From Thermoanaerobaculia bacterium (GTDB lineage: Bacteria; Acidobacteriota; Thermoanaerobaculia; Multivoradales; J023), in contig JAUIJL010000001.1 of NCBI GenBank assembly GCA_030431255.1, positions 682,001 through 746,000 on the forward strand: 64,000 bases of DNA, in the 5' to 3' direction. This document shows, piece by piece, positions 4,951 through 40,428 of this stretch. How positions within the stretch are numbered: position 1 is the first letter of the stretch; each line of letters begins with the position of its first letter. The notes under the pieces are model-generated. The model was not told where the DNA came from. It ran no database searches and was given only the letters and a program-made list of their open reading frames with translations. The translations under genes and the position numbers were made by a program.

Positions 4951-5051
4951 GAAAGCCCCCGCAGGCAGAATTCACGGTTTGGGTCTCGGGTGGAGACTTC
5001 AGACGTCGAGCTCGTCTGACATGGGGCTCGGCGCTGAGGCGTGCTGAGCCA

Positions 5052-6841: not shown

Positions 6842-7632
6842 ACGGCGACCGGGGCCTTGATCCGGGGGTGGGGGCGGTAGTCTTTCAGCTGAAAGTGCTC
6901 ATAACGGAAGTCGTCGAGCTCCTTCGGTCCGGGGTCCAAAACCAGCTGCGGCAGCTCCCGGGGCTCCCGGGAAAGCTGCTCCTCAGCTTGCTCGAGATGG
7001 TTGAGATAGAGGTGGGCGTCGCCGAGACTGTGGACGAAATCTCCCGGCTCGAGGCCACATACTTGGGCCACCATGAGGGTGAGGGCCGCGTAAGACGCGA
7101 TATTGAAGGGCAGACCTAAAAAAACGTCTGCGCTGCGTTGATAGAGCTGGCAAGACAGGCGCCCCTCGGCAACGTAGAATTGAAAGAGGGTGTGGCAGGG
7201 CGGAAGGGCCATTTGCGGCAAGTCGCCGACATTCCAAGCGCTGACGATGAGCCGCCTCGAATCGGGATGATGGCGGATGTCGTGGACTACCCCCTGCAAT
7301 TGGTCGACGGTATCGCCGCCGCGGGTGGGCCAGGATCGCCACTGGTAGCCGTAGATGGGACCGAGCTCGCCGTCGGGAGCTGCCCACTCATCCCAGATCG
7401 TGACTCCGTGCTCCCGCAGGTAGGAGACATTGGTCGATCCTTGAATGAACCACAGCAGCTCGTGGAGAACGGATTTCAGGTGCACGCGCTTCGTAGTCAA
7501 CAGCGGAAATCCGCGGCTGAGGTCGAAGCGTAGCTGATGACCGAAGATGCTACGGGTTCCGGTACCGGTGCGATCGCCTTTGACGGTGCCGTGGTCGCGG
7601 ACCTGGCGCAGAAGGTCGAGGTAGGTTTTCAT
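6838..7632 (-). CDS. thyA: Thymidylate synthase
   Basis: 264 residues, exactly the length of the short E. coli-type enzyme. It methylates dUMP to dTMP using methylene-tetrahydrofolate. The active-site block [12 protein letters not shown] contains the nucleophilic Cys (about residue 146), followed by [18 protein letters not shown] for dUMP and folate binding. The N-terminal [16 protein letters not shown] is also conserved. It is the first gene of the thyA-folA-MFS operon. The 279-base region 7633-7911 between it and divergent sppA must hold both promoters; it also holds an 18-base triple repeat. Confidence 0.98.
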
Positions 7633-7810
7633 ATCGTTAAGGTGCCGAGCGGGTCGGGTAAAAGCGTTCGGGAAACGAAGCGGGCTCCGCGCCGCTGATT
7701 GTACCTGAAGGCGGCAACCTGGGCGCTTGTCTTACGTAAGCAACAACGAGCCGAATCCCATATGGAGTCGGATACGAATTTCAGATAGATACTCGGGTGT
7801 CAAACCATGA

Positions 7811-7864
7811 GGTCTCGAAGAAACACAGGGTCTCGAATGAATACCGGGTCTCGAGCATGAAGGT
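7811..7864. repeat. 18-bp tandem repeat, three units, upstream of sppA
   Basis: GGTCTCGA recurs at 7811, 7829 and 7847 with an exact 18-base period; the second half of each unit has diverged. It lies 48 bases before the sppA start, so it could be in the leader or be an operator array. Confidence 0.7.
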
Positions 7865-7911
7865 CCGATGAGCCCAGATCGAAATAACGGGAACGTCCCT
7901 CGGAGATAGAG

Positions 7912-9780
7912 ATGAGTCAAAAGAAAAAGGGAATCGGCGCGATTTTTGGCGGCTTGCTGCGCGGTGTCGATTTGAGCCGTCGGATCGTCGTCAACATCAT
8001 TTTCCTATTCCTGGTCATATTGGTCTTGGCCGCCCTCGGAGGTGGTGGAGGAACCGCGGTTCCGTCCAAGGCGGCGTTGGTGATTGCTCCGCAGGGCTTC
8101 CTGGTGGAGGAGCTGGCGGGAAATCCCATGGATCGGGCGGTTGAAAAAGCCCTGGACACCTACGTTCCCGAGACCCTGATGGCGGACGTCCTGGATGCCA
8201 TCGCCGCCGCTGAATCCGATGACCGCATTCAAGCCCTTTTCCTCAGCCTGAACGGCCTCCAGGGTGGGGGCTTGGACAAGTTGCAACGGCTTGCGGAGGC
8301 GATTGAGGATTTCAAAAGCTCCGGCAAGACCGTGGTCGCCACCGCCGATATCTATACCAAGGCCAGCTACTTGACGGCCACCGCGGCGGATGAGATCTAT
8401 CTCCACCCGATGGGCGCGGTATTGCTCGATGGCTACGGACGCTTCCGCACCTACCATCGGGAAGGCATCGAGCGTTTGGAGCTCGATTGGAACGTCTTCA
8501 AGGTCGGCGAATACAAATCCGCGGTCGAGCCTTATCTGCGCAACGGCATGTCCGACGAGGCGCGGGAGGCTAATCTCGAATATATGGGCGATCTTTGGGC
8601 GGCATATCTGGAGAAGGTCGCCGCGGGACGGAATCTCACCGCCGACGGGGTTTCGGAGAGTCTGGACTCCCTCGTCCAGCTCGTCCAAGAAGCGGACGGG
8701 CAGTTGGCCCAAGTGGCGCTTTCCGGCGGGCTGGTGGACCACTTGGCTCCTCGTCAGCAGGTCCGAGATCGGATGATCGAGCTGGTGGGTGAGAACAAGG
8801 AGAAAACTTCCTTCAGTCAGGTGTCGATGGACGATTACCTGGAGACCCTGGGAGAGGGCCGCCATCGGTATCCGACCCAAGGAGATGGCGTCGGCGTGAT
8901 CATCGCCCGCGGCACGATCCTCGACGGCAGCCATGCCCCGGGCACCATCGGTGGCGACTCCACCGCCAAGCTGATTCGCAAGGCGCGAAATGACGAGAAC
9001 GTGAAAGCAATCGTTTTGCGGGTGGATTCCGGCGGAGGCAGCGCGTTTGCCTCGGAGGTGATTCGCGAAGAGCTGGTTTTGGCGCGGAATCAAGGCAAGA
9101 AAGTGGTGGTATCCATGGGCAGCGTGGCCGCCAGCGGTGGATATTGGATTTCCACCGCGTCCGACGAGATCTGGGCGAGCCCGAATACCATTACCGGCTC
9201 GATCGGCATTTTCGGCATGATTCCCACGTACCAGAAACCCCTCGCCAAATACCTGGGCACTCGCGTGGATGGTGTCGGCACCAATTGGATGGCCGGTGCC
9301 TTACGTCCGGATCGCGAGCTCGATCCGCGGGTGGGCGAGATCGTGCAGTCGAATATTGAGCGTGGCTACCGAGAATTCCTGCAACGGGTCTCCGAAGCCC
9401 GCGACATGACCCCGGAAGAGGTGGATCCTTACGCCCGGGGACGGGTTTGGAGCGGCGCCGACGCCCTGGATATCGGCCTGGTGGATAAGCTGGGTGATCT
9501 CGAAGAGGCGATCGCCTCGGCGGCTGACCTCGCAGGTCTCGAAGAAGGCTACTCGGTGAAAGTGATCCAACAGGAGCTCGAGCTTGCGGATCAGCTGATG
9601 ATCGAGATGCTGGCTGAGGTCGGTGATCACTTCGGTCCTTTCAACGTCAAGGGCTTGTCGAAACCGAAGTCCGGGCTGGAACAGCGCCTGCTGAGCACCT
9701 TGGAGCAGCACCGCGAGATGTTGGCCCAATTCGATGATCCCATGGGCGTGTACGCTCACTGCCTGTGTGAGGTCGACTAG
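7912..9780 (+). CDS. sppA: Signal peptide peptidase SppA, long (67K-type)
   Basis: 622 residues, the size of the duplicated long SppA form. It degrades leftover signal peptides at the inner membrane. One N-terminal membrane anchor spans residues about 25-43. Two tandem S49 domains follow. The general-base Lys is K202 in VGEYKSAVEPYLRNGMS and the nucleophile Ser is S408 in SVAASGGYWIS, the same split arrangement as in E. coli. The ATG has a good Shine-Dalgarno (GGAG, six bases upstream). It transcribes away from thyA and converges on the desaturase gene. Confidence 0.95.
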   Translation: MSQKKKGIGAIFGGLLRGVDLSRRIVVNIIFLFLVILVLAALGGGGGTAVPSKAALVIAPQGFLVEELAGNPMDRAVEKALDTYVPETLMADVLDAIAAAESDDRIQALFLSLNGLQGGGLDKLQRLAEAIEDFKSSGKTVVATADIYTKASYLTATAADEIYLHPMGAVLLDGYGRFRTYHREGIERLELDWNVFKVGEYKSAVEPYLRNGMSDEAREANLEYMGDLWAAYLEKVAAGRNLTADGVSESLDSLVQLVQEADGQLAQVALSGGLVDHLAPRQQVRDRMIELVGENKEKTSFSQVSMDDYLETLGEGRHRYPTQGDGVGVIIARGTILDGSHAPGTIGGDSTAKLIRKARNDENVKAIVLRVDSGGGSAFASEVIREELVLARNQGKKVVVSMGSVAASGGYWISTASDEIWASPNTITGSIGIFGMIPTYQKPLAKYLGTRVDGVGTNWMAGALRPDRELDPRVGEIVQSNIERGYREFLQRVSEARDMTPEEVDPYARGRVWSGADALDIGLVDKLGDLEEAIASAADLAGLEEGYSVKVIQQELELADQLMIEMLAEVGDHFGPFNVKGLSKPKSGLEQRLLSTLEQHREMLAQFDDPMGVYAHCLCEVD

Positions 9781-28480: not shown

Positions 28481-28612
28481 ACGATTTTGACACTTGAGAG
28501 TGTTACCATTTCCTCCCATGTCAGCTCACCCGAAGAAGGACGTAACCCGTCCTGGAACCTGCACGATTTTTCAATCTCGGCTTAGGTGCTTGCCCAAAGA
28601 GGGGTTAGCTCG

Positions 28613-31600
28613 GTGAGGTCCAGGGGGCTGTCGCCGCAAGCTCGTTTCCGGCTCCCCGGCTGGATCGTTCTATGCTTCCTGTTCAGCCCGAATCCATCGG
28701 CATCCCGTGATCTGGACATTCGCCATTTCGGCGTCGCCGATGGCCTTCCCGATGCCGGCGTGACGGCATTGGACCAAGGGCCCGAGGGTCACCTTTGGGT
28801 GGCAGGCTCTTTCGGCATCCTCGCCTTCGATGGCCGCGAGACCCAACCCCTTCAGATTCAGCCTCGAATAGAGGCCGGCCAGGCGAAGTTGGATCGAGAT
28901 GCCTCGGGTGAGCTGTGGTCCTTGGCGGCGCAGGTCCCATTCTCCGTGCTTCATCATCACCCTTCGGGCACCCGATCTCTGCCGTTGGTGGCGCCGGGTT
29001 CCGAAGCCGCGGGCTCGGAAGCGGTGGTGACGGACTTCAAAGTCTTGGGCTCCCAATCCACCGAGGTGGCCCTGGCGACCACGGAGGGCCTATTCCTCTG
29101 GCGATCCCCGGATTGGATCCGGTTGACCACCGCCGACGGTCTGCCCGACGACCGAATTTATGCCTTGGCCGAGTGGGGTGGACGCCTGGTGGCGGGAGGG
29201 CCGTCGGGACTGGCTCTCGTCCGATCCGGGTTCGTGGATCGGACTTTGGATCAGCGATTGAAGCTGGCCCCTTCCCAACACATTCGAGCGATGGCGGTCG
29301 AGGGGCCGGGGCCGGAGGAAAGCCTCTGGCTGGTGGGAGATACATGGATCGGTCTGTTGACGGAGTCCGGATTCGAGGTCCTGGGAAGGGATCTCGAGCT
29401 GGGCGCGGCGGGGGTGGGCGGCGGCATCGCGGCCTCGGATGGAATGGGTGGCCTCTATGTGGCGATCGGACGCCGCGTTTCCTATTTCCATCCCATCCGA
29501 GGGATGGAGAGCTGGATAAACGAGGCCAGGGTCGGTCCGATCAGCAGCCTGTTGGTGGATCGAGAAAGCTCCGTGTGGTTGGCCGGCGAAAACGGGTTGT
29601 CTCGGGTGTCCAATCGGCGATTTGATGTCTTCACTGCCTCCTCGGACGGCATCTTCGACGACACGGTGTGCTCGGTGCTCGAGCGGCGCAACGGCGATGT
29701 GGTGTTGGGGCACCGTGGGGGACTGAGCTTCATCGGCACCGAGGCTCGGGTGACGGTCGAATTTTTGCCGCTGGTCACGCCGGCCGGGCGCCTGGAATTG
29801 ATTCGGGATCTGGCCGAGACCCCGGACGGGACCCTGTGGCTGGCGGCCGGCGAGCAGGGGGTTAGAGGATGGAACGGTCGGCTTTCGCCGCCGGTCCCCG
29901 GCTTAGGGCCGGACGACCGAGCTTTCTACTTGGAGGTCGTAGAAGATACCGGCGAGCTGTGGGTGGCATCGGGCTCCAAGCTATGGGCTCGGCCCAGAAC
30001 CGGGGGCGAGCTCTTAGAAGCCGGGCACCGTTTCGCCGCGGTCGTAGAGGCATCGACCCAAGGAGAGATCCCCGAGGCGGGACCGGTGGTGATCACGGGT
30101 CTCAAGGCGGGAGCCCAAGGGATCTGGGTGTTGACCAGCGCCGGAGTGAGCCTCTTGGATTCGAAGGATCCATCTTCGGATCGCCATTGGCGTTGGGCTC
30201 CCGGCGCGGAATCGATCCTGGCTCGTGATCTCGCGCCTCCGACCCGACCGGGCCGGGATCAAACCATTTGGGTGGCCACCTCGGACGGCCCCTATCGCGC
30301 CGCGGAGACAGGGTTTCTAGAACCCGTCGCCCAACTGGGCATTCGGGATGAGCTGAGCTTTGTCATCCGCGAAGGCAAGGCCCTCTGGATGGGCAGTGAT
30401 GAAGCACTTTACCGCTTCCAACCCGGAGAGTCCGGGTTGTTGGAGGGCGTCTCCGCCCTCGAGCCTTGGTCCGAGCTGCATCGAGCTACCGGAGGCGGAG
30501 CGGCCCGTGACACCCTCGGCCGCCTCTGGGTGGGAACCGGACAGGGAGCCTTCGTTTTCGATCGCTACCGAGAGCCGATTCTGCTCCAGCCGCCCCTGCC
30601 CAAGCTCACCAGCATGGCGTCCGGGGATCGGGTTTGGTCCGCCTTGGAAACCCATCAGCTGCCGGCTGGGATCGATCAGCTCGTGTTTCGTTACTCGGTG
30701 GGCTCCCTGCTCGATCCGGGCCAAATTCTGATCAGCACGCGGCTGGAAGGTCTCGACGAGGATTGGTCGGAGCCCTTGACCTCGGAAGTTTTGGAAACCC
30801 GGTATTTCGACCTACCACCGGGGGAGTATCGGTTCCAGGTCCGGGCGATGAGCGCGGTCGGTGGCTGGAGCCCGGTGGTGAGCTCTGAACCGGTAGTTCT
30901 CGTCGGTCCGTTCTGGCGTCAGTCGTGGTTCTACGGGATTCTCGGTCTGGTGGTCCTGGTGGGCATGGTCATCCTACAGGCGGTGCTCACCCAACGGCGC
31001 CACTCCCTGCTGTTGGAGGAGGAGGTGGCCCAACGGGTCGCGGAGCTTCAGGCTTCGGAAGACCGATACCAGAAAACTTTCAAGACGATCGAAGATGGAG
31101 TCGTCACGACCGACGAGCGTGGACGTGTAGCTCTCATGAATCCCAGGGCACAAGAGCTCACGGGATGGAGCGAGGCCGACGCCATCGAAGAAGGTATCGA
31201 CAAGGTCTTGAAGCTGTTCCAGCTCGGAGTGGGTGATCAGGTCGGGATGCCGCTCTCGTTGCTCTCTAATGAGCTTCAGGACACGATCGGCCCGACCCAA
31301 ACCGCGATCCTGGAATCGCGAACCGGCAACCAACGCACGGTGGAGCTGGCCGCTTCACCGATCGTCAGCCGTGGGGTCGGCTTTGCCGGCTTGGTGTTCA
31401 CCTTTCGAGATATTTCTCGCAAGCGAGAGGTCGAAGCCGAGCTGGCCAGGGCTCACAAGCTCGAGGCCATCGGTTTGCTGGCCGGTGGCATTGCCCACGA
31501 CTTCAACAATTTGCTGACGGTGATCATGGGCAGCTTGTCCTTAGTGCTCGAAACCACGGAGCTGAAACAACAGCAACGCCAGGTGCTTGCCGATGCTGAG

Positions 31601-32581
31601 AATGCGCTGATTCGAGCCCGTGATCTCACCCAGCAGCTGCTGACCTTCTCCCGTGGGGGAGCACCGGTCCGTGAAACGGCTTCCATCGCAGAGGTGATTC
31701 AAGACTCGGCTTCATTCGTGCTCAGGGGCTCTAAGGTCAGCTGCGAGATCGAGCTGCCGGACGACCTCTTCACCGTCGAAATCGATGCCGGGCAAATCAG
31801 CCAGGTGCTGAACAATCTCTTGATCAACGCGGTGCAAGCCATGGCGGACGGGGGCAAAGTGCAGATCGTGGGGCGAAATCTGGTCGAGCAAGCTCCCCAC
31901 CCGCTGAGGTCCGGATCCTATATTTGTATTTCGGTGATCGACACGGGAATCGGTATTGCCGAGCACCTTATCCACCGCATCTTCGACCCCTATTTTTCCA
32001 CCAAACAAGAAGGCCGAGGTCTAGGGCTCGCCTCTGCCTATTCCATCGCCAAGAGCCACGACGGCTTGCTGACGGTTCAAAGCGCGCTCGGTGAGGGCAC
32101 GACCTTCAATCTCTATTTGCCGGCCTCTGAGGTGAAGGAATCTCCAATAGACGAGGCGGAGATCGTCGAGGCGGGGGAGATGGGCGGCAAGGTGCTGCTG
32201 ATGGACGACGATCCGGTGGTTCGTCGGACCACGGGGGTGATGCTCGAGAAGCTCGGTTTCGATGTCGCGTTTGCGGTCGATGGTCATCAAGCGCTGAATC
32301 TATTCGCCAGGCACATGGAAGCGGGCGACCCCTTCAAGTTGGTGCTGATGGACTTGACGGTTCCGGGAGGCATGGGCGGGCAGGAGGCGGTCCAGTACAT
32401 TCTTCAGCTGGAACCCAATGCGGCGGCGGTGGTCTATAGCGGCTATTCCAACGACCCAGTGCTCGCCAACTATCGAGACTACGGATTTCGAGGAAGGCTC
32501 TCGAAGCCGTTCCGTCTGACGGATCTTCGGGCTGTTCTGGCGGAGGTCCTGGCTTCGGCAGAGGGTGATTCTCAAGATTGA
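28613..32581 (+). CDS. Hybrid histidine kinase with two-component propeller sensor
   Basis: 1322 residues from GTG 28613, favoured over GTG 28586 because GAGGGG lies eight bases before it. Signal peptide (1-28). Two-component (Reg_prop) propeller blades run to about residue 690 (typical blades read DGLPDDRIYALAEW and DGTLWLAAG), followed by a Y_Y_Y domain and one membrane helix (about 768-790). The cytoplasmic part has a PAS domain, HisKA with H962 in GGIAHDFNNLLT, an HATPase, and a receiver with phospho-Asp D1247 in VLMDLTVPGG. This layout is that of a periplasmic-ligand sensor (polysaccharide-type propellers are the best studied). No response-regulator gene is adjacent. The leader carries the 10-mer GTGTTACCAT at 28500. 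Confidence 0.9.
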   Translation: MRSRGLSPQARFRLPGWIVLCFLFSPNPSASRDLDIRHFGVADGLPDAGVTALDQGPEGHLWVAGSFGILAFDGRETQPLQIQPRIEAGQAKLDRDASGELWSLAAQVPFSVLHHHPSGTRSLPLVAPGSEAAGSEAVVTDFKVLGSQSTEVALATTEGLFLWRSPDWIRLTTADGLPDDRIYALAEWGGRLVAGGPSGLALVRSGFVDRTLDQRLKLAPSQHIRAMAVEGPGPEESLWLVGDTWIGLLTESGFEVLGRDLELGAAGVGGGIAASDGMGGLYVAIGRRVSYFHPIRGMESWINEARVGPISSLLVDRESSVWLAGENGLSRVSNRRFDVFTASSDGIFDDTVCSVLERRNGDVVLGHRGGLSFIGTEARVTVEFLPLVTPAGRLELIRDLAETPDGTLWLAAGEQGVRGWNGRLSPPVPGLGPDDRAFYLEVVEDTGELWVASGSKLWARPRTGGELLEAGHRFAAVVEASTQGEIPEAGPVVITGLKAGAQGIWVLTSAGVSLLDSKDPSSDRHWRWAPGAESILARDLAPPTRPGRDQTIWVATSDGPYRAAETGFLEPVAQLGIRDELSFVIREGKALWMGSDEALYRFQPGESGLLEGVSALEPWSELHRATGGGAARDTLGRLWVGTGQGAFVFDRYREPILLQPPLPKLTSMASGDRVWSALETHQLPAGIDQLVFRYSVGSLLDPGQILISTRLEGLDEDWSEPLTSEVLETRYFDLPPGEYRFQVRAMSAVGGWSPVVSSEPVVLVGPFWRQSWFYGILGLVVLVGMVILQAVLTQRRHSLLLEEEVAQRVAELQASEDRYQKTFKTIEDGVVTTDERGRVALMNPRAQELTGWSEADAIEEGIDKVLKLFQLGVGDQVGMPLSLLSNELQDTIGPTQTAILESRTGNQRTVELAASPIVSRGVGFAGLVFTFRDISRKREVEAELARAHKLEAIGLLAGGIAHDFNNLLTVIMGSLSLVLETTELKQQQRQVLADAENALIRARDLTQQLLTFSRGGAPVRETASIAEVIQDSASFVLRGSKVSCEIELPDDLFTVEIDAGQISQVLNNLLINAVQAMADGGKVQIVGRNLVEQAPHPLRSGSYICISVIDTGIGIAEHLIHRIFDPYFSTKQEGRGLGLASAYSIAKSHDGLLTVQSALGEGTTFNLYLPASEVKESPIDEAEIVEAGEMGGKVLLMDDDPVVRRTTGVMLEKLGFDVAFAVDGHQALNLFARHMEAGDPFKLVLMDLTVPGGMGGQEAVQYILQLEPNAAAVVYSGYSNDPVLANYRDYGFRGRLSKPFRLTDLRAVLAEVLASAEGDSQD

Positions 32582-32887
32582 GAATGGAGATTTTCACGAC
32601 TGAGAATTCTCGCTAGGGTCCAAAGCCTCGCAAATCACCGGAATTCAGAAAAGCGGGCCTTCCATGCACCTTTTGAAGAGCAAATTGTTTTTATGGGAGC
32701 TTTGCCCGAATTCAAAAAAGCCGGCACGGTCTTTGAATAAGAAAGAAGCATAGTTGGTTAATCCACATCTTTTTTTGGCATCGTAGCTGTTGATGGTACT
32801 CAGGTGGGTCGGTGGTCCTAGGGCCATCGCTATCCACTCGACTTGGCCGGGGTTACCCGGCTGGTCGACACGGCTTTCTGGTTCACG

Positions 32888-32971
32888 TTGTTGATGGTAA
32901 GAGAGTTTTGTTGGTCTGACAGCGTTATTGGTCTGACAGCGATTTGGTTCGATTTTTTTGTTGATGGTAAG
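32888..32971. repeat. Nested pair of direct repeats
   Basis: TTGTTGATGGTAAG occurs at 32888 and 32958, flanking two copies of TTGGTCTGACAGCG at 32911 and 32928. A partial third copy (TGTTGATGGTA) lies at 32789. Confidence 0.7.
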
Positions 32972-33040
32972 CGAGCCCGGCGAGGGGCTCACCCCGCGAG
33001 GCGAAGAATTTCCCCCAAAGATTCTTCCGTCTCGTTCCTC

Positions 33041-33066
33041 AAAACCCCCGGAGATCCGGGGGTTTT
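33041..33066. terminator. Perfect bidirectional intrinsic terminator
   Basis: AAAACCCCCGG (33041-33051) pairs perfectly with CCGGGGGTTTT (33056-33066) around an AGAT loop, with the T-run part of the stem on both strands. It lies 42 bases after the speD stop and probably ends the leftward PspA-SpeD operon. Confidence 0.88.
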
Positions 33067-33107
33067 GTCGTATTCGTCGAATCCGTAGGGCGCCGCAGCG
33101 ACCCGCT

Positions 33108-33542
33108 CTAGGAAGAAGCTGTTACCGGCAAGGCGGGGGCCATGGACGTGATCACTTGGACGTCCTTCGGCAACAACAAGTCGTGCTCGCTGAGCTCCTC
33201 CGGCAGGCCTCGAAGAATCTCCTGAAGCCTCGAAGACCGCGCGTTCAAGCCGGTGGCCAAATGCTCACAGCCGGGGCGTGGATCGAGCCCACCGCAGGTA
33301 AAGATGTCGATGGCAGCGTACCCGCGCCCGGGCCAGGTGTGAATCGACAAATGGGATTCTGCGATCACCACCACGCCGCTGACGCCATCGGGCTCGAATG
33401 GGTGGAACGCATGCCGGAGAACCGTCGCACCCACCAGCTCCGCGGATTCCAACATCAGCGAGCGGATAGCGCTCAAATCGTTCAAACGGTCCGACGGGCA
33501 ACCGTAGAGCTCGGCGATCAGATGGCGGGCGAGGGTCTTCAT
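33108..33542 (-). CDS. speD: S-adenosylmethionine decarboxylase proenzyme
   Basis: 144 residues, the size of bacterial class 1B enzymes. It self-cleaves before Ser63 (in AESHLSIHTWP) to make the pyruvoyl group, then decarboxylates S-adenosylmethionine to give the aminopropyl donor for spermidine synthesis. H68 and C83 (IDIFTCGG) complete the known active site. It is the last gene of a six-gene leftward operon whose other members are PspA-type membrane-stress proteins. The aminopropyltransferase-like gene lies at the far, divergent end of the locus. Confidence 0.95.
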   Translation of the reverse strand: MKTLARHLIAELYGCPSDRLNDLSAIRSLMLESAELVGATVLRHAFHPFEPDGVSGVVVIAESHLSIHTWPGRGYAAIDIFTCGGLDPRPGCEHLATGLNARSSRLQEILRGLPEELSEHDLLLPKDVQVITSMAPALPVTASS

Positions 33543-33564
33543 GGTGAGAAGGTCCCGGAGCGAA

Positions 33565-34269
33565 TCAAGACTCGATTCCCATCTTGGCCTTCAAAGCAGC
33601 GAGGGAGTCGTTGGTCGGCGGCGCGCCTTCCGGCAGCATGGAAGCCGGCTTAGAGTCGTCGGCCCAGGCCGCCTCGTCCGCTGACAGCTCGCCATAGGCC
33701 GCGGCGAGAGCTTCCTTTTCTTCCACCCGGGCTTTCATCCGCTCCAGCATCTCCACCGTGCTCGACGCGTCGACCCCCGCCAGCTGTTTGTTGACCTTCT
33801 GCATCGAATCCGCGGTCCGCGCCCGGGCCCGTAGGGTCACCAAATCGTTCTCGTAGCGAGTGATCTCCCTTTTCAGCTGGTCGACCTTGCCCTGCATCGA
33901 ATCCACCACCCTTTGTTGGGTTTCCCAATCCGTCCGCGATTGGCCCACTTGGCTAAGCACGGTCTCTTTTTGGGCCAAGGCTTGGGCCGCGAGCCGTTCC
34001 GCCTGGACGGAATCCAATTTACCGTCTTTCATTTGTTGGAGTGCCAGCATCGCCTTGCGCTCGTAGTCGGCGGCCAACCGTTCCCGGTCGTCAAAGTCCT
34101 TTTTGAGGCGCAGGGCGACGGACTTCACCTGCGTGAGCCCTTGGAGAGCTTCTTGTAAGTTGTGCTTCAAGTCGTTGATCGCCTGCTCCGCCTGCTGGAT
34201 CGGATCCTGGAGCGGGCTCGTCGCCCGGTCTCCGAAACGACTGAAGAGCTTGCTGAAGATACTGGCCAT
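33565..34269 (-). CDS. pspA: PspA/IM30-family membrane-stress protein
   Basis: 234 residues, nearly all helix and coiled coil, as in PspA/Vipp1 proteins (about 220-260 residues). It starts with an amphipathic helix (SIFSKLFSRFGDRATS), followed by PIQQAEQAINDLKHNLQEAL and long heptad stretches. PspA oligomers coat the inner membrane and limit proton leak. It sits 22 bases upstream of speD and 38 bases downstream of the YbjN-like gene. Classical partners PspB, PspC and PspF are absent here, so the branch resembles E. coli YjfJ rather than PspA itself. Confidence 0.9.
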   Translation of the reverse strand: MASIFSKLFSRFGDRATSPLQDPIQQAEQAINDLKHNLQEALQGLTQVKSVALRLKKDFDDRERLAADYERKAMLALQQMKDGKLDSVQAERLAAQALAQKETVLSQVGQSRTDWETQQRVVDSMQGKVDQLKREITRYENDLVTLRARARTADSMQKVNKQLAGVDASSTVEMLERMKARVEEKEALAAAYGELSADEAAWADDSKPASMLPEGAPPTNDSLAALKAKMGIES

Positions 34270-34307
34270 GGAGGGTTTCCTTTGACGAGAATTCGAGTCG
34301 ATGGGAA

Positions 34308-34733
34308 TCAGGAACGGGCGAAGCCGAGCAATTCTTGTCCATGCTCGACCAAGGCCAACGACAATGCGGAAAGAGAGCCTTCAATCTCGTTCAAGTCGAT
34401 ATTTGCCAGCTGAAGGGTATCCCTGAAGATGACGTGTCGCGCCTCATCGTCGATCACAAAAGCGCCGTGGACCAGGGTGCGGTTCATTTGCAGAAGCCGC
34501 AGATAGAGATTTCCCGGATTGGCCGGCACCTCGAGGATCATTTGCTCGAGGATTACGATCGGCGACTCGCAATCGACCACCAGGTTCTTGATACCGGCCT
34601 CTTCGTCCTGGATGACCACCAGCTCCTCGGCGGCATCCTCGTGAGAAATCAGATATCCCAGATCCGAGATATAGCTCTTCACGAGCTCGAATTTATCGGT
34701 CGACCCGCCGTCGGCGGTTTCGGTTTCGGACAT
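34308..34733 (-). CDS. YbjN / DUF2170 (YjfI)-like protein
   Basis: 141 residues, acidic, with the alternating helix/strand pattern of the type-III-chaperone-like YbjN fold. The most diagnostic stretch is LLQMNRTLVHGAFVIDDEAR. No catalytic residues are seen. In enteric bacteria a comparably sized protein (YjfI) sits beside a PspA paralogue, and the location here is the same. Its role is probably as a soluble partner of PspA. Assignment between YbjN and DUF2170 needs a profile search. Confidence 0.65.
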   Translation of the reverse strand: MSETETADGGSTDKFELVKSYISDLGYLISHEDAAEELVVIQDEEAGIKNLVVDCESPIVILEQMILEVPANPGNLYLRLLQMNRTLVHGAFVIDDEARHVIFRDTLQLANIDLNEIEGSLSALSLALVEHGQELLGFARS

Positions 34734-34795
34734 TCGGGGTGAGCTCCTTGGTGTTGAAAAGGAATGAGCTAGGTGGGTGTGCGGTCAGCGGATGT

Positions 34796-35653
34796 CTAGA
34801 AAATGGCCCAGCCGACCAGCATCGAAGCCGCGACGTAGGAAAAGGCCTCGATCAGCCCCGCGCCGACGTTGGGGTGCTCTTGGCCGACCAGCTCATGAGT
34901 CAGGGAGACCCCCGGCACCAGCATCTTGTCGCAGATCCATCGGGCTCCGGGCAAGACCACCAATCCCATGGCCAAATAGAGAGAGAAGTTGGTGAGGTCG
35001 ATATTCCAGCCGGTGAAGTCGCCCGCAATGCTCAGACGCACTAGATTTCCGACCGCGATCAACAACCCGCCGACCGCCACGCCCACGGCTGCGTTGTCTT
35101 TCTCGATCTCGTCGTGCAGATCAAAGCCGACGGTGGCTGCGTAGAGCCTGACGATCAGCACGAGAGCCGCCTGACCGAGCAGCCAAAATACGGAGGCGGT
35201 GATCAAATCGATGTATTCACCGTGGACCGCGCCGGCCACAATCAGACCCGTGGCAATTTGGTTGCCCGCCTCCAGGGCGCCGGCTCCCACGTTGCGATCG
35301 TCGACGATCTCTTTGGCATTTCTGAATTTGGGGAAGGCGATGCGGTCATTGACCCAGCTGCCGAGGGTCAGCATGACGATCGCTGTCAACCCGAAGAAGA
35401 AGATATCGAAGAGATCGGTCGCGAGGTCGCTGCCCTCGCCGCTCAAAATGCCCCCGAGGGCCAACACCAGACCGAAGTAATAACCCACCATGGCGACGGC
35501 CAGGGCAGGGTTGTCGTTTTCGAATAGCTCGTGTCGCAGGTTGAAATTGGGATGTCGGCGGTCGTAGACCCACTTTCCGATGAAGAAGAGGGTGAAGCAC
35601 GCCGCCAGATAGACCAAGCCGGATACGAAAATGTCGAGATGCTCAACGCTCAT
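34796..35653 (-). CDS. DUF350 membrane protein (tandem domains)
   Basis: 285 residues with about eight membrane segments arranged as two tandem copies of the four-helix DUF350 unit (first half to about residue 140, second from about 145). The conserved turns are ENDNPALAVAMVGYYFGL and EKDNAAVGVAVGGLLIAVG. DUF350 proteins such as E. coli YjfL accompany PspA relatives; no biochemical activity has been shown. The gap to the upstream lipoprotein gene is twelve bases. Confidence 0.88.
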   Translation of the reverse strand: MSVEHLDIFVSGLVYLAACFTLFFIGKWVYDRRHPNFNLRHELFENDNPALAVAMVGYYFGLVLALGGILSGEGSDLATDLFDIFFFGLTAIVMLTLGSWVNDRIAFPKFRNAKEIVDDRNVGAGALEAGNQIATGLIVAGAVHGEYIDLITASVFWLLGQAALVLIVRLYAATVGFDLHDEIEKDNAAVGVAVGGLLIAVGNLVRLSIAGDFTGWNIDLTNFSLYLAMGLVVLPGARWICDKMLVPGVSLTHELVGQEHPNVGAGLIEAFSYVAASMLVGWAIF

Positions 35654-35665
35654 GGGCCGGGGTCC

Positions 35666-36433
35666 TCATTTGCCCCCGAACCGGCCGCGACCCCGAGATT
35701 GGGTCCTGCCGACTCGACTGCGTACACGTTGGGAGAACTTGCTTTTGCGAGCGCTTTGGCGAAGCTGCTGCCGCTCGAAGAAGCTCGGATGACGGGTTTT
35801 GGTGATGCTGCCTTTGGTACCGTAATAGGGTTTGGAGCCCGATCCGAAGTAGGGTTTTCCGCGGGAGTAGGAGCCGCGATAGTCGTCCCAATGGCCGCGT
35901 CGAATCGGATAGGTGGAGGTGCCGAGCAGGTCCCGAAGCAGAGAGTACTGGCCGTAGAAGACCCAAAAGCTGCCGCCGCTGCTGTCGCGCTGCCAGCGGC
36001 CGTAGCGGTTGTCACCCACATATTGATAACCAGGGGGTTGTTGCACCCGGGTGGCTTGGTCGTTCGGGGATTTGGTCAAGATGGCCATGCCCAAATAGCC
36101 CTCGTAAGCGGTGAAAAAGGATTTGCTCACCTCAACCCAGCCGCGGTCTCTGGTTTTCAGCTCCGCGCCCGTGTCGCCTTGGGTGGCGACCGACTCGGCG
36201 TAGAGAATCTTGTATTTGTGGTAGTAGCTCTTGAAGAAATTGCCCGATATCTGCATGTCTTCCAGGATCACGGAGTATTCGGGAAGTGAGCTCAGCTCTT
36301 GGGTCAGGCGCCGGAGCGGGTCGGGGACCGAGCTGCTGCAAGCAAGCTGGCTCACGACGAGAGCCAGGACCGCGACGCGAAGACCGGCGGTGACCCAAGC
36401 GGGCTTGAGGGAGGTTGGAGGAATGGTTTTCAT
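35666..36433 (-). CDS. Basic lipoprotein of the PspA locus
   Basis: 255 residues with a long N-region and lipobox QLAC near residue 32. Residues about 45-160 are a mixed fold rich in Tyr. The last 60 residues are strikingly basic and Gly/Arg-rich (ends RVGRTQSRGRGRFGGK). I do not recognise a family, though E. coli YjfM/YgiB (DUF1190) lipoproteins have comparable Gly/Arg/Ser-rich tails and the same neighbourhood. The tail may bind anionic lipid or LPS. Its ATG overlaps the DUF4178 stop by four bases. Confidence 0.7.
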   Translation of the reverse strand: MKTIPPTSLKPAWVTAGLRVAVLALVVSQLACSSSVPDPLRRLTQELSSLPEYSVILEDMQISGNFFKSYYHKYKILYAESVATQGDTGAELKTRDRGWVEVSKSFFTAYEGYLGMAILTKSPNDQATRVQQPPGYQYVGDNRYGRWQRDSSGGSFWVFYGQYSLLRDLLGTSTYPIRRGHWDDYRGSYSRGKPYFGSGSKPYYGTKGSITKTRHPSFFERQQLRQSARKSKFSQRVRSRVGRTQSRGRGRFGGK

Positions 36434-36978
36434 GAGTTGCCGGGAAGAATGTTGGTGAATTGATAGTCCTCAACGGCGTGACCGACCGAAGCGGTGATTT
36501 CCGTTTCACTCCACTGTTGGATCGACAAGAACTTTTCGTCGGTATCGTCGACGAATTCCCACACGATCAGCTCGTGACGATCGGATCCCTCGGAGGCCGT
36601 CATCTCACCGCCCACGGAACCCTCTAAATAATACAGCGTGCCCTGGTGCTCGATCTGCTCCGGTGGATCCTCGTGTTTGAGGATATGGCTGCGGGCGTTG
36701 CCCAAAGCGCCGATGGGAATCGATTTGGAAATGCTCCAGAGCTCGCCTTCGCCGACCGATCGCTCCAAGTAGATACTCTCGCGGCTCTGAGACAGCTCCC
36801 ATTCCTCCGCGCTACGGCCGTCGTTGAATTTGAAACGGCTGTAGTCGGTGACCTCCCACGTGTGCAGGTCGTAGTCGACCAGGTATCCGATTCGCAATTT
36901 TTCGAGCACCAAGTCCGCCAAGGGGTCGATCTGGGGCTGGGCTTTGGGGGTCCGACGAAATCGATCAAGGAAACCCAT
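36430..36978 (-). CDS. DUF4178-like protein
   Basis: 182 residues from ATG 36978 (GGAG about nine bases upstream); a longer in-frame extension upstream has no ribosome site. The segment LVDYDLHTWEVTDYSRFKF and the strand-rich LYYLEGSVGGEMTA region match the DUF4178 pattern, a small beta-rich domain found in PspA-associated operons. It is the first gene of the leftward operon. The 170 bases to the divergent spermidine-synthase-like gene (36979-37148) must contain both promoters. Confidence 0.7.
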   Translation of the reverse strand: MGFLDRFRRTPKAQPQIDPLADLVLEKLRIGYLVDYDLHTWEVTDYSRFKFNDGRSAEEWELSQSRESIYLERSVGEGELWSISKSIPIGALGNARSHILKHEDPPEQIEHQGTLYYLEGSVGGEMTASEGSDRHELIVWEFVDDTDEKFLSIQQWSETEITASVGHAVEDYQFTNILPGNS

Positions 36979-37148
36979 TCGGGAGCTCCGGGTTGGTGGA
37001 TGAATAGCAGTGTAGCCCATGGGCTCAGGGCGGGACCAGCCGTGAGGCCTATTGATCCTCGGCGGGCGGGGGCTCTCGGACACGGTCGTTGCCGTTCTTC
37101 CGCCCACACGTTGCAGGGGTACGCGGATCGAGAAACAATATTCGTCCC

Positions 37149-38759
37149 ATGGAAGCTAACCCCACAGATCCGGTCGGTAGATCGGGAACCCCTTCGCCGG
37201 CCGGCGGGCAGGTAGCGACGCCGGAAAACGGTGTATTTGCCAGGGCCTTGCTCATTTCGGTCTTCGTCATCGCCACCTGCGGGCTGATCTACGAGCTGTT
37301 GGCCGGCACTATCGCCAGCTATTTGCTCGGCGATAGCGTCACCCAATTCTCAACCATCATCGGAGTTTACCTCTTCGCCATGGGGGTGGGATCCTGGTTG
37401 TCGCGTTTTGTGCTGCGAGAGCTGGTGACCATGTTCGTGCGCATCGAGATCTTGGTCGGTTTGGTGGGCGGGCTCACCTCCCCGGTGCTCTTTCTCGCCT
37501 TTGCCGAGGTCTCTGCCTTTCGGGTGATTCTCTACGGATGGGTGACGCTCACCGGCATCTTGGTGGGGCTCGAAATTCCCCTGCTGATGCGGATCCTGGA
37601 GCATGAGCTGCCGTTCGCGGATTTGGTGTCGCGGGTGCTTTCGTTGGACTATTTGGGCGCGCTGGCTGCTTCGCTGCTTTTCCCACTGTGGTTGGTGCCG
37701 CGTTTGGGTTTGATGCGCTCGTCGTTCCTATTCGGCGTGCTCAACCTCTTGGTCGCGGTGGCGACCTGCCACCTTTTCGCCGATCGTCTCGCGGCTCGCC
37801 GTCGAGTGACCGCCCAAGCTTGGGGCGCGCTCGTTCTCCTCCTATTGGGCTTGATGTCTTCGGAACGGCTGATGAGCTTTGCCGAGCAGCGCCTCTACGA
37901 CCAACCGGTCATCTACGCCGACTCGTCTCCCTACCAGCGGCTGGTGATCACCCGCAAGCTCGACGAGGTGCGCCTCTTTCTCGACGGTAATCTTCAATTT
38001 TCTTCCCGGGACGAGTATCGCTATCACGAGGCCTTGGTGCATCCGGCCATGACCTACTTCGAGCAGCCTCGGACCAACGTTCTGGTGCTCGGGGGTGGAG
38101 ATGGTTTTGCGGTGCGCGAGATCTTGCGTTACCCCTCGGTGGAGCGGGTGGTCCTGGTGGATCTCGATCCTTTGATGGTGAAGGTGTTTCGCGATCACGA
38201 CGAGCTCTCGGGTCTCAACGGCTTTGCCCTCAGGGATCCACGGGTCGAGGTCGTTCACCAGGACGCCTTCATCTGGCTGGACCGGCTGGACGAGCAATTC
38301 GATCTGGTGATCGTAGACTTTCCCGATCCGCGCAACTTTTCTCTCGGCAAGCTGTATTCCACGACGTTCTACCAACGATTGACCGCTGCCCTCCGTCCCG
38401 GGGCCGTGGTCGCTGTCCAATCTACGTCTCCGCTGCACACCCGAGAGGCCTTTTGGTGTGTGAATAAGACGCTGAAGACCGTGGGTTTTCACACCTTGCC
38501 TTACCATGCCACCGTGCCTTCCTTCGGCAAATGGGGATTCATCCTGGCGGCCGCACAGCCCCTGGACGTAGCGGTATTTCAGGCTGAGGCCGCCGGCCGC
38601 CTGCCCCAAGGCTTGAAATACCTCGCCCCAGGGCTTTTGCCCGGTCTCTTTCTGTTTCCTCCCGACATGGGACCCGTGGATGTCGACGAGAATCGGCTCA
38701 ACAACCAAGCGGTGGTGGAGTATCACGAGCGTGGATGGAAAGCGACGCCGCCGACCTGA
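37149..38759 (+). CDS. Membrane-embedded spermidine synthase-like aminopropyltransferase
   Basis: 536 residues from ATG 37149. The first 230 residues contain about seven membrane segments (starting ALLISVFVIATCGLIYELLAG). The C-terminal half is a class I methyltransferase-type spermidine synthase fold: the binding loop VLVLGGGDGFAVREILRY, acidic VVLVDLDPLMV, then VIVDFPDPRNFSLGKLYSTTFY, which holds the Asp and Tyr that usually contact the polyamine. It should transfer aminopropyl groups from decarboxylated S-adenosylmethionine, the product of SpeD in the divergent operon. The membrane fusion is a known but unusual type. There is no Shine-Dalgarno, and a weak TTGCAG/CAATAT pair (37111-37141) ends seven bases before the ATG. 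Confidence 0.87.
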   Translation: MEANPTDPVGRSGTPSPAGGQVATPENGVFARALLISVFVIATCGLIYELLAGTIASYLLGDSVTQFSTIIGVYLFAMGVGSWLSRFVLRELVTMFVRIEILVGLVGGLTSPVLFLAFAEVSAFRVILYGWVTLTGILVGLEIPLLMRILEHELPFADLVSRVLSLDYLGALAASLLFPLWLVPRLGLMRSSFLFGVLNLLVAVATCHLFADRLAARRRVTAQAWGALVLLLLGLMSSERLMSFAEQRLYDQPVIYADSSPYQRLVITRKLDEVRLFLDGNLQFSSRDEYRYHEALVHPAMTYFEQPRTNVLVLGGGDGFAVREILRYPSVERVVLVDLDPLMVKVFRDHDELSGLNGFALRDPRVEVVHQDAFIWLDRLDEQFDLVIVDFPDPRNFSLGKLYSTTFYQRLTAALRPGAVVAVQSTSPLHTREAFWCVNKTLKTVGFHTLPYHATVPSFGKWGFILAAAQPLDVAVFQAEAAGRLPQGLKYLAPGLLPGLFLFPPDMGPVDVDENRLNNQAVVEYHERGWKATPPT

Positions 38760-40428
38760 GCTGCCCCCTCGGTCCGCCCGGAGCGGGATCTCCCGTCGCC
38801 GGGCAATGACTTGGATGTCTCTGGCGCCGTGGGTGATGGGCGCTGGGGCATGCGGGCGGAGCCGATCCGAGCTCCCGGACCACAGTGTGTCTCTCGAAGG
38901 CATCGAAGGGGAGATCGTCGGCCCTTCCATGGAGGCGGGCCACTTGCTGCGCTCGGGAGGAGCCGGTCTGCCGGCATCACCCCCGGAGGTCCAGGAGCTC
39001 GACACTTTGATCGTCGGAGGCGGCATCGCCGGATTGACGGCTGGGTGGCGTCTGAACGGTGAGGGGCATGGGGATTTCAAGCTCCTGGAGCTGGAAAATG
39101 AGGTAGGTGGGAAGTCGCGCTCGGGTCGAAGCTCGATTTCTCCCTATCCCTGGGGCGCCCACTACCTGCCGGTGCCCAGCCGGGAGTCGGCCATCGTCCG
39201 GAAGATTCTGGAAGAAATGGGCCTGGTGATCGGCCGAGACGCCGACGGCGAGCCGATCTACGATCCCCGGCACCTCTGCCATGCGCCCCAAGAGCGGCTT
39301 TTCGTCGGCAACCGTTGGCAGCCCGGGGTCTCGTTGCGCTCGGTGGCCGAGCCCGAGGACGCCGCCGAGCTCGCCGCCTTTGAATCCCGTTTGCGGGAGC
39401 TGCGAGATTTCCGAGACGAGCAGGGGAGGAGGGCCTTCGCCTTGCCCATGGAGCTGTCGAGCCGGGATCCCGGGTTGCTCGCCCTAGACCGAATATCGAT
39501 GGCGGAATATCTGGACGCAGAGGGATGGACCTCGCCCCGGATCCGCTGGTACCTCGACTATTGCTGTCGGGACGACTACGGATGCTCGTTGGACGAGACC
39601 TCGGCCTGGGCGGGCTGGCACTATTTCTGCGCCCGGCCGGAGGACTCGGAGGTGCTGACCTGGCCCGAGGGAAATGGCAGGCTGGTGGATTTCTTGCGTC
39701 GAGCATTGGGGAATCGCATCGAAACCAGCACCTTGGTGTATCGGGTGCGATCGGCCGGCGATGGGGGAGAGCGGGTTTCAGTCGACACCTTGAACCTAAA
39801 AACCCAAGTCACGACCCGCTTTCGCTGTCGCCGACTGATCTACGCCCTGCCACGATTCACGGCTCCCTATGTGATTGAAGGGTTCGACCGCTCGCTGAGC
39901 CGCAGCTTCACCTATGCCCCGTGGTTGGTGGCCAATCTGACGGTGGATGGTCGTCGTCGCCCGAGCCAAAACCAAGGTTATTTCAGCAGTCAGACCGCCT
40001 GGGACAACGTGCTCTACGACAGCCGGTCCTTGGGGTACGTGGTCGCAACCCATCAGAATCTGAGCGCATACCCGGGGGCCACGGTCCTGACCTACTATCT
40101 GCCGTTCGTGGACTTGGATCCGGTCTCGGCGCGGACGCGGCTACAGCAGGCGTCCTGGTCGGAGCTCGCCGCTTCCGTGCTGGGGGATCTGGCCCAGGCC
40201 CATCCTGATTTGGTGAAAAGAGTCGACCGCATCGACCTCATGCGCTGGGGGCACGCGATGATCCGTCCGGTACCGGGATTCATCTGGGGATCGGACCGTC
40301 GCCATGATGGGCTGGAAGAGAAATTTCCGGGCATCCTTTTCGCCCATTCCGATATGAGTGGACTGTCCTTATTCGAAGAGGCGAGCTATCGGGGGGCTGT
40401 AGCCGCGGATCGCGTGCTGTCCTGCTGA
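38731..40428 (+). CDS. FAD-dependent amine-oxidase-like flavoprotein with Tat lipoprotein signal
   Basis: 565 residues from GTG 38731, overlapping the end of the upstream gene by 29 bases; a further upstream ATG (38680) would overlap more. The N-terminus has a twin-arginine motif (SGISRRRAMTWM) followed by a hydrophobic stretch and a lipobox-like GAGAC, indicating Tat export and lipid anchoring. The dinucleotide fold begins LIVGGGIAGLTAGWRL, with the GG-doublet NEVGGKSRSGRSS after it, as in amine oxidases and phytoene-desaturase-like enzymes. Cofactor binding is secure; the substrate (polyamine or lipid) is inferred from the neighbouring aminopropyltransferase only. Confidence 0.82.
   Translation: MDGKRRRRPELPPRSARSGISRRRAMTWMSLAPWVMGAGACGRSRSELPDHSVSLEGIEGEIVGPSMEAGHLLRSGGAGLPASPPEVQELDTLIVGGGIAGLTAGWRLNGEGHGDFKLLELENEVGGKSRSGRSSISPYPWGAHYLPVPSRESAIVRKILEEMGLVIGRDADGEPIYDPRHLCHAPQERLFVGNRWQPGVSLRSVAEPEDAAELAAFESRLRELRDFRDEQGRRAFALPMELSSRDPGLLALDRISMAEYLDAEGWTSPRIRWYLDYCCRDDYGCSLDETSAWAGWHYFCARPEDSEVLTWPEGNGRLVDFLRRALGNRIETSTLVYRVRSAGDGGERVSVDTLNLKTQVTTRFRCRRLIYALPRFTAPYVIEGFDRSLSRSFTYAPWLVANLTVDGRRRPSQNQGYFSSQTAWDNVLYDSRSLGYVVATHQNLSAYPGATVLTYYLPFVDLDPVSARTRLQQASWSELAASVLGDLAQAHPDLVKRVDRIDLMRWGHAMIRPVPGFIWGSDRRHDGLEEKFPGILFAHSDMSGLSLFEEASYRGAVAADRVLSC

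What the first reader, a model, noticed from the sequence alone, without database searches (positions are those of the whole stretch)
33108..40428. PspA membrane-stress module wired to polyamine (aminopropyl) chemistry
A six-gene leftward operon (DUF4178, basic lipoprotein, DUF350, YbjN/DUF2170-like, PspA, SpeD) ends in a perfect terminator and diverges from a membrane-fused spermidine-synthase-like gene plus a Tat-exported FAD amine-oxidase-like gene. SpeD makes the donor that the synthase-like enzyme uses, so the two arms are biochemically connected. E. coli yjfIJKLMC likewise joins a PspA paralogue and DUF350 to a glutathionylspermidine-synthetase-like protein. The recurring theme suggests that an aminopropylated molecule (lipid or polyamine) is made, and perhaps oxidised, at the membrane that PspA protects. 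No ornithine or arginine decarboxylase is in the window, so the acceptor amine is open.
Basis: partly seen in the sequence, partly recalled or inferred. Interest (0 to 1): 0.8.

Follow-up and report, generated by a model that had tools for sequence, protein, structure and literature searches.

The report
Membrane aminopropyltransferase operon with PspA
This is one bacterium's copy of an already described gene cluster that probably attaches a small amine tail to an unknown membrane-associated molecule, here combined with a membrane-stress protein; the open puzzle is what gets the tail and on which side of the membrane.

Summary
The genes are as described. Leftward: DUF4178, lipoprotein, double DUF350, CesT/Tir-type (YbjN-like), PspA, SpeD, then a 12-bp-stem hairpin. 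Divergent: a 7-TM spermidine-synthase-like fusion (APT) and a Tat-type flavoprotein. The proposed link is real but in print: Ravi et al. 2024 (PMC11237479) describe this operon group and suggest aminopropylation of other substrates; Li et al. 2019 (recalled) proposed a non-putrescine acceptor. I correct the emphasis: near 80 related APTs the usual neighbours are DUF4178, FAD, DUF350 and SpeD, while PspA was found near 1. In 396 genomes of the phylum, 72 of 74 with the APT have SpeD, against 63 of 322 without. Residues aligned to the donor site are invariant in 54 of 54 sequences; acceptor-side positions differ from B. subtilis spermidine synthase. The host has arginine-decarboxylase and deoxyhypusine-synthase-homologue genes elsewhere. 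One point I have not found in print: seven TM helices and a positive-charge bias in 54 of 54 sequences predict the catalytic domain outside the cytoplasm, away from where its donor is made. Verdict: new member of a known kind.

The parts
33108..33542 (-). speD, class 1b S-adenosylmethionine decarboxylase proenzyme (144 aa); the only AdoMet_dc hit in the genome
   Evidence: TIGR03330 127.1 bits, cut-off 75.65; single genome hit; ESxxSxH and following Cys present
33565..34269 (-). PspA/IM30 family protein (234 aa)
   Evidence: PF04012 108.7 bits, cut-off 33.9; two further over-cut-off PspA homologues and one below it elsewhere in the genome
34308..34733 (-). CesT/Tir-like, YbjN-related protein (141 aa)
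   Evidence: PF22550 163.5 bits, PF10722 30.7 bits
34796..35653 (-). DUF350 membrane protein with two DUF350 repeats (285 aa)
   Evidence: PF03994 182.6 bits, two stretches; two adjacent genome hits
35666..36433 (-). Exported, probably lipoprotein (255 aa), basic C-terminus; no Pfam family
   Evidence: No Pfam or NCBIfam hit; related proteins in 5 other genomes of 396 and in relatives G003, G005, G006, several with a clearer lipobox; the window copy's own lipobox is weak
36430..36978 (-). DUF4178 protein; likely ATG start at 36978 (ORF extends to 37107)
   Evidence: PF13785 62.7 bits, cut-off 25; start inferred
36979..37148 (.). Divergent intergenic region between the two arms, expected to hold the promoters
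   Evidence: Inferred from start sites; no sigma-70-like site found there
37149..38759 (+). Membrane aminopropyltransferase: 7 TM helices plus spermidine-synthase-type domain (536 aa)
   Evidence: NF002956 661.6 bits, cut-off 472; AF2 model pLDDT 92.0; catalytic columns invariant in 54 of 54
38731..40428 (+). Tat-type, probably lipidated FAD protein of the amine-oxidase fold (likely GTG start 38731)
   Evidence: PF01593 54.6 bits, cut-off 19.8; model pLDDT 87.8 with amine-oxidase/protoporphyrinogen-oxidase fold; RR plus lipobox-like N-terminus
33040..33067 (.). 12-bp palindromic hairpin ending in TTTTG, probable terminator after speD
   Evidence: Fold; sequence; not listed by the consensus scan

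Best explanation
The locus is a membrane aminopropyltransferase system with a PspA accessory module. SpeD decarboxylates S-adenosylmethionine (inferred from family and intact motif). The 7-TM-anchored transferase uses that donor (inferred from the conserved donor site) to add an aminopropyl group to an amine acceptor that is not simply putrescine and is presented at the membrane (inferred). DUF350, DUF4178 and the lipoprotein are membrane and surface partners of this enzyme (shown only as neighbours). The exported flavoprotein acts on the product or a related amine outside the cytoplasm (inferred). PspA with its CesT/Tir-like partner is this lineage's exchangeable membrane-maintenance module, in place of the Band-7/SHOCT or K+-channel genes of other versions (inferred from gene content). 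Host bulk polyamine synthesis runs elsewhere, through SpeA and a deoxyhypusine-synthase homologue (inferred from families).
For: Conserved neighbourhood: of 80 APT loci, 62 have FAD, DUF350 or DUF4178 within 7 kb; in these DUF4178 is found in 55, FAD in 52 (41 within 400 bp), DUF350 in 49 and SpeD in 36; with a 2.5-kb limit 58 loci remain with 51, 52, 49 and 36. Phylum co-occurrence APT-SpeD 72 of 74 against 63 of 322 without APT, Fisher p 2e-38, not corrected for phylogeny. Transferase: Y292, H293, D318, D372, D390, D393 and Q424 are invariant in 54 of 54, so the residues aligned to donor and catalytic sites are intact (roles recalled); acceptor-side F391 (50 of 54), P392, T426, S427 and F459 differ from the aligned B. 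subtilis spermidine synthase residues and, F391 apart, are invariant. Closest solved structures in sequence and fold are T. thermophilus triamine/agmatine transferase (Z 35.3, rmsd 2.4 A, 280 aligned) and plant thermospermine synthase (Z 34.6, 1.7 A, 262); the listed spermidine synthases of other species lie at Z 21-32. Genome: one SpeD; separate speA and DHS homologue side by side, two arginase-family genes, no OKR decarboxylase. Exchange of the PspA module: K+-channel genes in two relatives, Band-7 in 24 of 62. Export of the flavoprotein: RR in the first 50 residues in 34 of 42, lipobox-like in 22 of 42.
Against: No substrate was tested. The genome can probably make putrescine, so spermidine synthesis by the transferase is not excluded. 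18 of 80 APT loci have none of DUF350, DUF4178 and FAD within 7 kb, and 0 of 13 of these with full flanks have SpeD within 7 kb, so the enzyme can stand alone. 26 of the 62 show no SpeD within 7 kb, some on short contigs. W462, on the acceptor side, is shared with B. subtilis spermidine synthase, and transferases for agmatine or spermidine also depart from it elsewhere, so the pocket does not prove an unusual acceptor. Predicted topology puts the catalytic domain away from cytoplasmic donor. The flavoprotein has no column with lysine in more than 13 of 42. NCBI names the transferase model 'polyamine aminopropyltransferase'.
Confidence: 0.6

Rival explanations
1. The transferase is an ordinary, membrane-tethered polyamine synthase that makes spermidine or a longer polyamine in the cytoplasm, and the neighbours respond to polyamine level.
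For: NF002956 is named polyamine aminopropyltransferase; residues aligned to the donor site are invariant; closest structures are transferases for agmatine, triamines or spermidine; the genome has speA and two arginase-family genes.
Against: Curated spermidine synthase model TIGR00417 scores 137.6 against a cut-off of 249.55; several acceptor-side residues differ from B. subtilis SpdSyn; Li et al. 2019 (recalled, not held) reported no spermidine and no complementation by such fusions.
Confidence: 0.25
2. The transferase domain lies outside the cytoplasm and aminopropylates an envelope molecule there; donor is exported, perhaps by the 7-TM domain or DUF350, and the Tat-exported flavoprotein works on the same side.
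For: Seven TM helices in a pLDDT 92 model and more K+R on N-side loops in 54 of 54 sequences, mean 9.9 against 3.5; RR in the first 50 residues of 34 of 42 flavoproteins; exported lipoprotein in the same operon.
Against: Decarboxylated S-adenosylmethionine is made in the cytoplasm and no exporter is known to me; the positive-inside rule (recalled) has exceptions, and I ran no control protein of known topology; the model has no membrane.
Confidence: 0.2
3. The divergent arms are neighbours by accident: the PspA arm and the transferase arm have unrelated jobs.
For: PspA and CesT were found near only 1 of the 80 APT genes.
Against: The divergent DUF4178-lipoprotein-DUF350 / APT-FAD layout recurs in three relatives, one of them with a CesT hit beyond DUF350; one genome of another family has DUF4178, lipoprotein, DUF350, APT, CesT and PspA in one direction (L129); a Vicinamibacteria contig of 9.9 kb has all the families except SpeD (L017); published as one operon group.
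Confidence: 0.05

Closest known systems
CesT/Tir-PspA plus 7TM-spermidine-synthase operon group of Ravi et al. 2024 (PMC11237479; section 19 read whole, passages of section 20), example AAN56744.1-AAN56747.1
   Same: CesT/Tir-PspA dyad, 7TM-SpdSyn fusion, DUF350 8TM protein, lipoprotein, DUF4178; same suggestion that PspA systems follow polyamines or aminopropylation of other substrates
   Different: Here the transferase is divergent and paired with a flavoprotein, and SpeD closes the PspA operon; section 19 names AdoMet decarboxylase and polyamine oxidase only for variants that lack the dyad
Class 1b AdoMetDC with MFS-SpdSyn fusion and DUF350 (Li et al. 2019, Biochem J 476:2579; not held, abstract recalled, title seen in reference lists)
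   Same: SpeD, membrane-fused SpdSyn-like protein and DUF350; acceptor proposed to be other than putrescine
   Different: PspA-CesT arm is not part of what I recall of that paper
E. coli yjfIJKLMC (annotated region seen; Ravi group three)
   Same: DUF2170/CesT-Tir-like YjfI, PspA-family YjfJ, DUF350 YjfL and a polyamine-linked enzyme
   Different: Peptide-spermidine ligase YjfC instead of an aminopropyltransferase; no speD among the six genes
T. thermophilus triamine/agmatine aminopropyltransferase (1UIR, 3ANX) and plant thermospermine synthase (6BQ2)
   Same: Catalytic domain fold (Z 34.6-35.3, 30-31% identity) and aligned donor site
   Different: PDB chains of 309-312 and 292 residues without a TM domain; different acceptor-side residues (GGGEG too, where this family has GGGDG)

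Membership tests
Ravi 2024 CesT/Tir-PspA + 7TM-SpdSyn operon group | CesT/Tir-PspA dyad | tested here: met
   PF22550 163.5 and PF04012 108.7 bits on adjacent genes
Ravi 2024 CesT/Tir-PspA + 7TM-SpdSyn operon group | Spermidine-synthase-like domain fused to 7TM domain | tested here: met
   NF002956 over cut-off; seven TM helices in the model
Ravi 2024 CesT/Tir-PspA + 7TM-SpdSyn operon group | DUF350 8TM protein and DUF4178 protein | tested here: met
   Two DUF350 stretches and DUF4178 over cut-offs; the count of 8 TM was not modelled
Ravi 2024 CesT/Tir-PspA + 7TM-SpdSyn operon group | Lipoprotein of the Ctha_1186 domain | tested here: inconclusive
   Exported protein in the right place, no Pfam/NCBIfam hit; Ctha_1186 itself was not compared; window lipobox weak
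Canonical spermidine synthase (SpeE) | Curated model TIGR00417 cut-off | tested here: not met
   137.6 bits against 249.55
Canonical spermidine synthase (SpeE) | Donor-site residues (GGGDG Asp, second Asp, catalytic Asp, Tyr-His/Gln pair) | tested here: met
   Invariant in 54 of 54; roles of the residues recalled
Canonical spermidine synthase (SpeE) | Putrescine-side residues as in B. subtilis SpdSyn (VDSTEP, QTDNP, PTY) | tested here: not met
   VDFPDP, QSTSP and PSF in the window, invariant or nearly so in the family; a nearby Trp is shared; roles recalled; the T. thermophilus and plant transferases also differ there
Class 1b S-adenosylmethionine decarboxylase | TIGR03330 cut-off and pyruvoyl Ser/His/Cys motif | tested here: met
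   127.1 bits against 75.65; ESxxSxH in the window and in 38 of 38 ORFs, Cys downstream in 36 of 38 (one of the two misses is a truncated ORF, the other, L044, lacks it); a narrower Cys pattern matched only 2 of 38
Flavin amine/polyamine oxidase | PF01593 cut-off and fold | tested here: met
   54.6 bits against 19.8; putrescine oxidase Z 28.4 (3.4 A, 418 aligned), but protoporphyrinogen oxidase 27.8 (3.4 A, 405) is tied
Flavin amine/polyamine oxidase | Conserved catalytic lysine of MAO/PAO (recalled) | tested here: not met
   No column with a window residue has lysine in more than 13 of 42; the site itself was not aligned to a solved enzyme
Flavin amine/polyamine oxidase | Oxidises a polyamine | not testable with these tools
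   Needs an enzyme assay
Classical PspA (NCBI equivalog) | TIGR02977 cut-off | tested here: not met
   37.4 bits against 242.95; the broader PF04012 is met

The most novel reading that the evidence does not exclude
The aminopropyltransferase domain works outside the cytoplasm: donor made by SpeD is moved across the membrane, the enzyme aminopropylates a lipid or other envelope amine there, and the Tat-exported flavoprotein then modifies that product, with PspA guarding the membrane. Aminopropyl transfer outside the cytoplasm would be a new kind of chemistry for the bacterial envelope.
Probability: 0.2. Interest if true: 0.8.

Novelty: new member of a known kind. Interest (0 to 1): 0.42.

Why it matters
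I found no report of the acceptor of this membrane aminopropyltransferase family (searches listed under Tried and rejected, held library only), though the enzyme and its partners occur in many phyla. Naming the usual partners (SpeD, DUF350, DUF4178, flavoprotein) and the separate host polyamine genes narrows the question to one labelled-donor experiment and one topology experiment in a laboratory strain. If an envelope molecule is aminopropylated, it would tie polyamine chemistry directly to envelope stress control.

Tried and rejected
PspA as the core of the system: rejected, since it was found near 1 of 80 APT genes. The first PspA profile was narrow: it scored this genome's second PspA at only 10.2 bits. 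A profile from six PspA proteins (two of them E. coli) recovered 5 of 6 when each was left out in turn (E. coli YjfJ was missed) and still found only L017 among the 80 loci. The CesT and lipoprotein profiles were not widened in this way. The 80 loci are the closest of 477 candidates, so more distant PspA-linked versions are under-sampled. The DUF4178 and Band-7 profiles come from clusters of which one representative each was checked in Pfam. Four loci (L049, L053, L057, L091) are among the 62 only through a DUF4178 hit 5-7 kb away; without them the count is 58.

Chance adjacency: rejected. Fold search to tell the flavoprotein's substrate: no discrimination. Profile alignment did not reach the MAO lysine region. 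The promoter scan found nothing in the divergent gap. Other spermine-synthase-domain hits in the genome (seven, at most 62.4 bits, four of them in proteins over 1,000 aa) were set aside as not the same family. Six TM helices instead of seven (third helix re-entrant) was considered by hand; it would put the charged loops 4-5 and 6-7 outside, so I rejected it. No control protein of known topology was run.

Papers: eight searches gave Ravi 2024 and the Pseudomonas BacA paper as relevant; of most other hits I saw only the listing. Passages of PMC11107197 and PMC8503589 held nothing on this family. I found no statement of an extracytoplasmic aminopropyltransferase in these, within the held library only. 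I did not test whether the other genomes of the phylum also have a canonical SpeE, and the gene between CesT and DUF350 in L017 was not examined.


Full report
WHAT IS THERE. Pfam gives, right to left on the minus strand, DUF4178, a protein without a family, DUF350 (two stretches), CesT_Tir_1 with a YbjN hit, PspA_IM30 and AdoMet_dc. On the plus strand it gives Spermine_synth and Amino_oxidase. NCBIfam puts the transferase in NF002956 (661.6 bits, cut-off 472), well below the cut-off of the SpeE model TIGR00417, and SpeD in TIGR03330. A palindromic hairpin with a 12-bp stem lies at 33040-33067 after speD. The genome is 10.19 Mb in 54 contigs.

PRIOR ART. Ravi et al. 2024 (PMC11237479; [quoted passage not shown] They propose that PspA systems monitor polyamines or aminopropylation of other substrates. 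They also report AdoMet decarboxylase and polyamine oxidase in related operons without the dyad, with Band-7/SHOCT in its place in one variant. They cite Li et al. 2019 (Biochem J 476:2579). That paper is not held. I recall its abstract as reporting functional AdoMetDC, absent spermidine, no complementation by the fusion, and a proposed acceptor other than putrescine. The Pseudomonas BacA paper (PMC10948618, passages) repeats the association.

WHAT IS CONSERVED. A search of genome contigs with the transferase gave 477 relatives, of which the best 80 were kept. With profiles built here, 18 of 80 loci have none of FAD, DUF350 or DUF4178 within 7 kb; 12 of these 18 are titled Azonexus, Azonexaceae or Dechloromonas. 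In the other 62, DUF4178 is present in 55, FAD in 52, DUF350 in 49, SpeD in 36, Band-7 in 24 and PspA in 1. In the 35 of these with at least 6 kb upstream and 4.5 kb downstream the numbers are 32, 27, 27, 21, 16 and 0. Four of the 62 have only a DUF4178 hit 5-7 kb away; with a 2.5-kb limit 58 loci remain, with 51, 52, 49, 36, 23 and 1. The PspA count was checked with a broader profile and stayed at 1 of 80. By record title (phylum assignment mine) the loci span Acidobacteriota, Verrucomicrobiota, Proteobacteria, Gemmatimonadota, Elusimicrobiota and Bacteroidota. The sample is biased to the closest transferases. Three relatives in the same family (G003, G005, G006) keep the divergent APT-FAD / DUF4178-lipoprotein-DUF350 layout. 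G003 and G006 carry a second transferase and a K+-channel gene after DUF350, and G005 has a CesT hit there at its contig end. One genome of another family (L129) has DUF4178, lipoprotein, DUF350, APT, CesT and PspA in one direction. L017, a 9.9-kb contig, has the PspA arm and the APT-FAD arm without SpeD. The two other nearest genomes (G001 in the same genus, G002) have DUF350-APT without a FAD hit in the stretches read. The lipoprotein matched 6 of 396 genomes, this one included; G003, G005 and G006 seem not to have been in that draw.

CO-OCCURRENCE. In 396 genomes of the phylum, 74 have the transferase at E 1e-60 or better (73 over the curated cut-off) and 135 have SpeD at E 1e-5 or better. 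Both occur in 72; SpeD alone in 63; transferase alone in 2; neither in 259 (Fisher p 2e-38, not corrected for shared ancestry). In 37 of the 74 the two are within 8 kb on one contig. In 14 they are farther apart on one contig, 12 of these by more than 600 kb, so linkage is common but not universal.

THE HOST'S OTHER POLYAMINE GENES. The genome has one SpeD, a biosynthetic arginine decarboxylase (TIGR01273 780 bits, cut-off 624.1) next to a divergent deoxyhypusine-synthase homologue, two arginase-family genes and no OKR-type decarboxylase. Such a homologue (SpeY) is one of the known homospermidine routes (PMC10407285, passages); here it is below all NCBIfam cut-offs, so the assignment is by family only. 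The transferase is the only strong PF01564 hit in the genome (131.7 bits); seven further hits score 62.4 bits or less, four of them in proteins over 1,000 aa.

THE TRANSFERASE. In 54 sequences (the window and 53 non-redundant of 65 usable proteins) the residues aligned to the donor and catalytic sites are invariant: Y292, H293, D318, D372, D390, D393, Q424 (roles recalled). On the acceptor side, F391 (50 of 54), P392, T426, S427 and F459 differ from the aligned residues of B. subtilis spermidine synthase, while W462 is shared. The window deviates from its family at K461 (Glu in 49 of 54). The model has pLDDT 92.0. Its catalytic domain is nearest to T. thermophilus triamine/agmatine transferase (Z 35.3, 2.4 A, 280 aligned) and thermospermine synthase (34.6, 1.7 A, 262); T. 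maritima spermidine synthase is at 32.1, B. subtilis at 27.6 and the human enzyme at 28-30. This favours an acceptor other than putrescine but does not identify it.

TOPOLOGY PUZZLE. The model has seven TM helices. Summed over loops, K+R average 9.9 on the N-terminal side and 3.5 on the catalytic-domain side, and all 54 sequences show the excess. By the positive-inside rule (recalled) this puts the catalytic domain outside the cytoplasm. I ran no control protein. The flavoprotein has RR within its first 50 residues in 34 of 42 and a lipobox-like motif in 22 of 42 (several chosen starts look wrong, which affects both counts). Donor synthesis is cytoplasmic, so either the rule fails here or donor or acceptor crosses the membrane. 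I could not resolve this.

THE FLAVOPROTEIN. Its model (pLDDT 87.8) has the amine-oxidase/protoporphyrinogen-oxidase fold; putrescine oxidase, bacterial MAO and protoporphyrinogen oxidase are tied. The family has many invariant residues (H144, Y145, W424, D425, H441, Q442, H508 among them) but no conserved lysine, so a standard amine-oxidase mechanism is doubtful.

JUDGEMENT. A real, conserved system of a kind already described, in a variant that joins the PspA-CesT arm to SpeD and the flavoprotein. The acceptor and the side of the membrane remain open.

Noticed in passing
L115 (G000:C29:24000-36000) 2617-9302: Two adjacent proteins of 1,164 and 1,073 aa, each with a spermine-synthase domain (mid-protein in the first) at about 50-61 bits, plus two more such proteins elsewhere in the genome; function unknown.
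   Followed up: partly
window 32640-33000: About 350 bp between the sensor kinase gene and the speD hairpin holds short repeats (GTTGATGGTA, TTGGTCTGACAGCG) seen by eye.
   Followed up: no
window 28586-32581: A 1,331-aa hybrid sensor kinase ORF with an apparent propeller-type N-terminus and receiver end (read from its translation) points toward the end of the speD operon; possible regulator, untested.
   Followed up: no
L109 10422-12194 and L110 7121-8929: Two relatives carry a second, lower-scoring transferase directly after DUF350, followed by a K+-channel gene with an RCK domain.
   Followed up: partly
L019, L021, L025, L026 and 14 further loci: Transferases, most of them Azonexus/Dechloromonas-type, with no DUF350, DUF4178 or flavoprotein within 7 kb; AIRS-, NusB- and PgpA-family neighbours recur in the set.
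   Followed up: partly
window 38529-38531 (residue K461 of the transferase): Lysine at a position that is Glu in 49 of 54 aligned sequences, between invariant G460 and W462.
   Followed up: no
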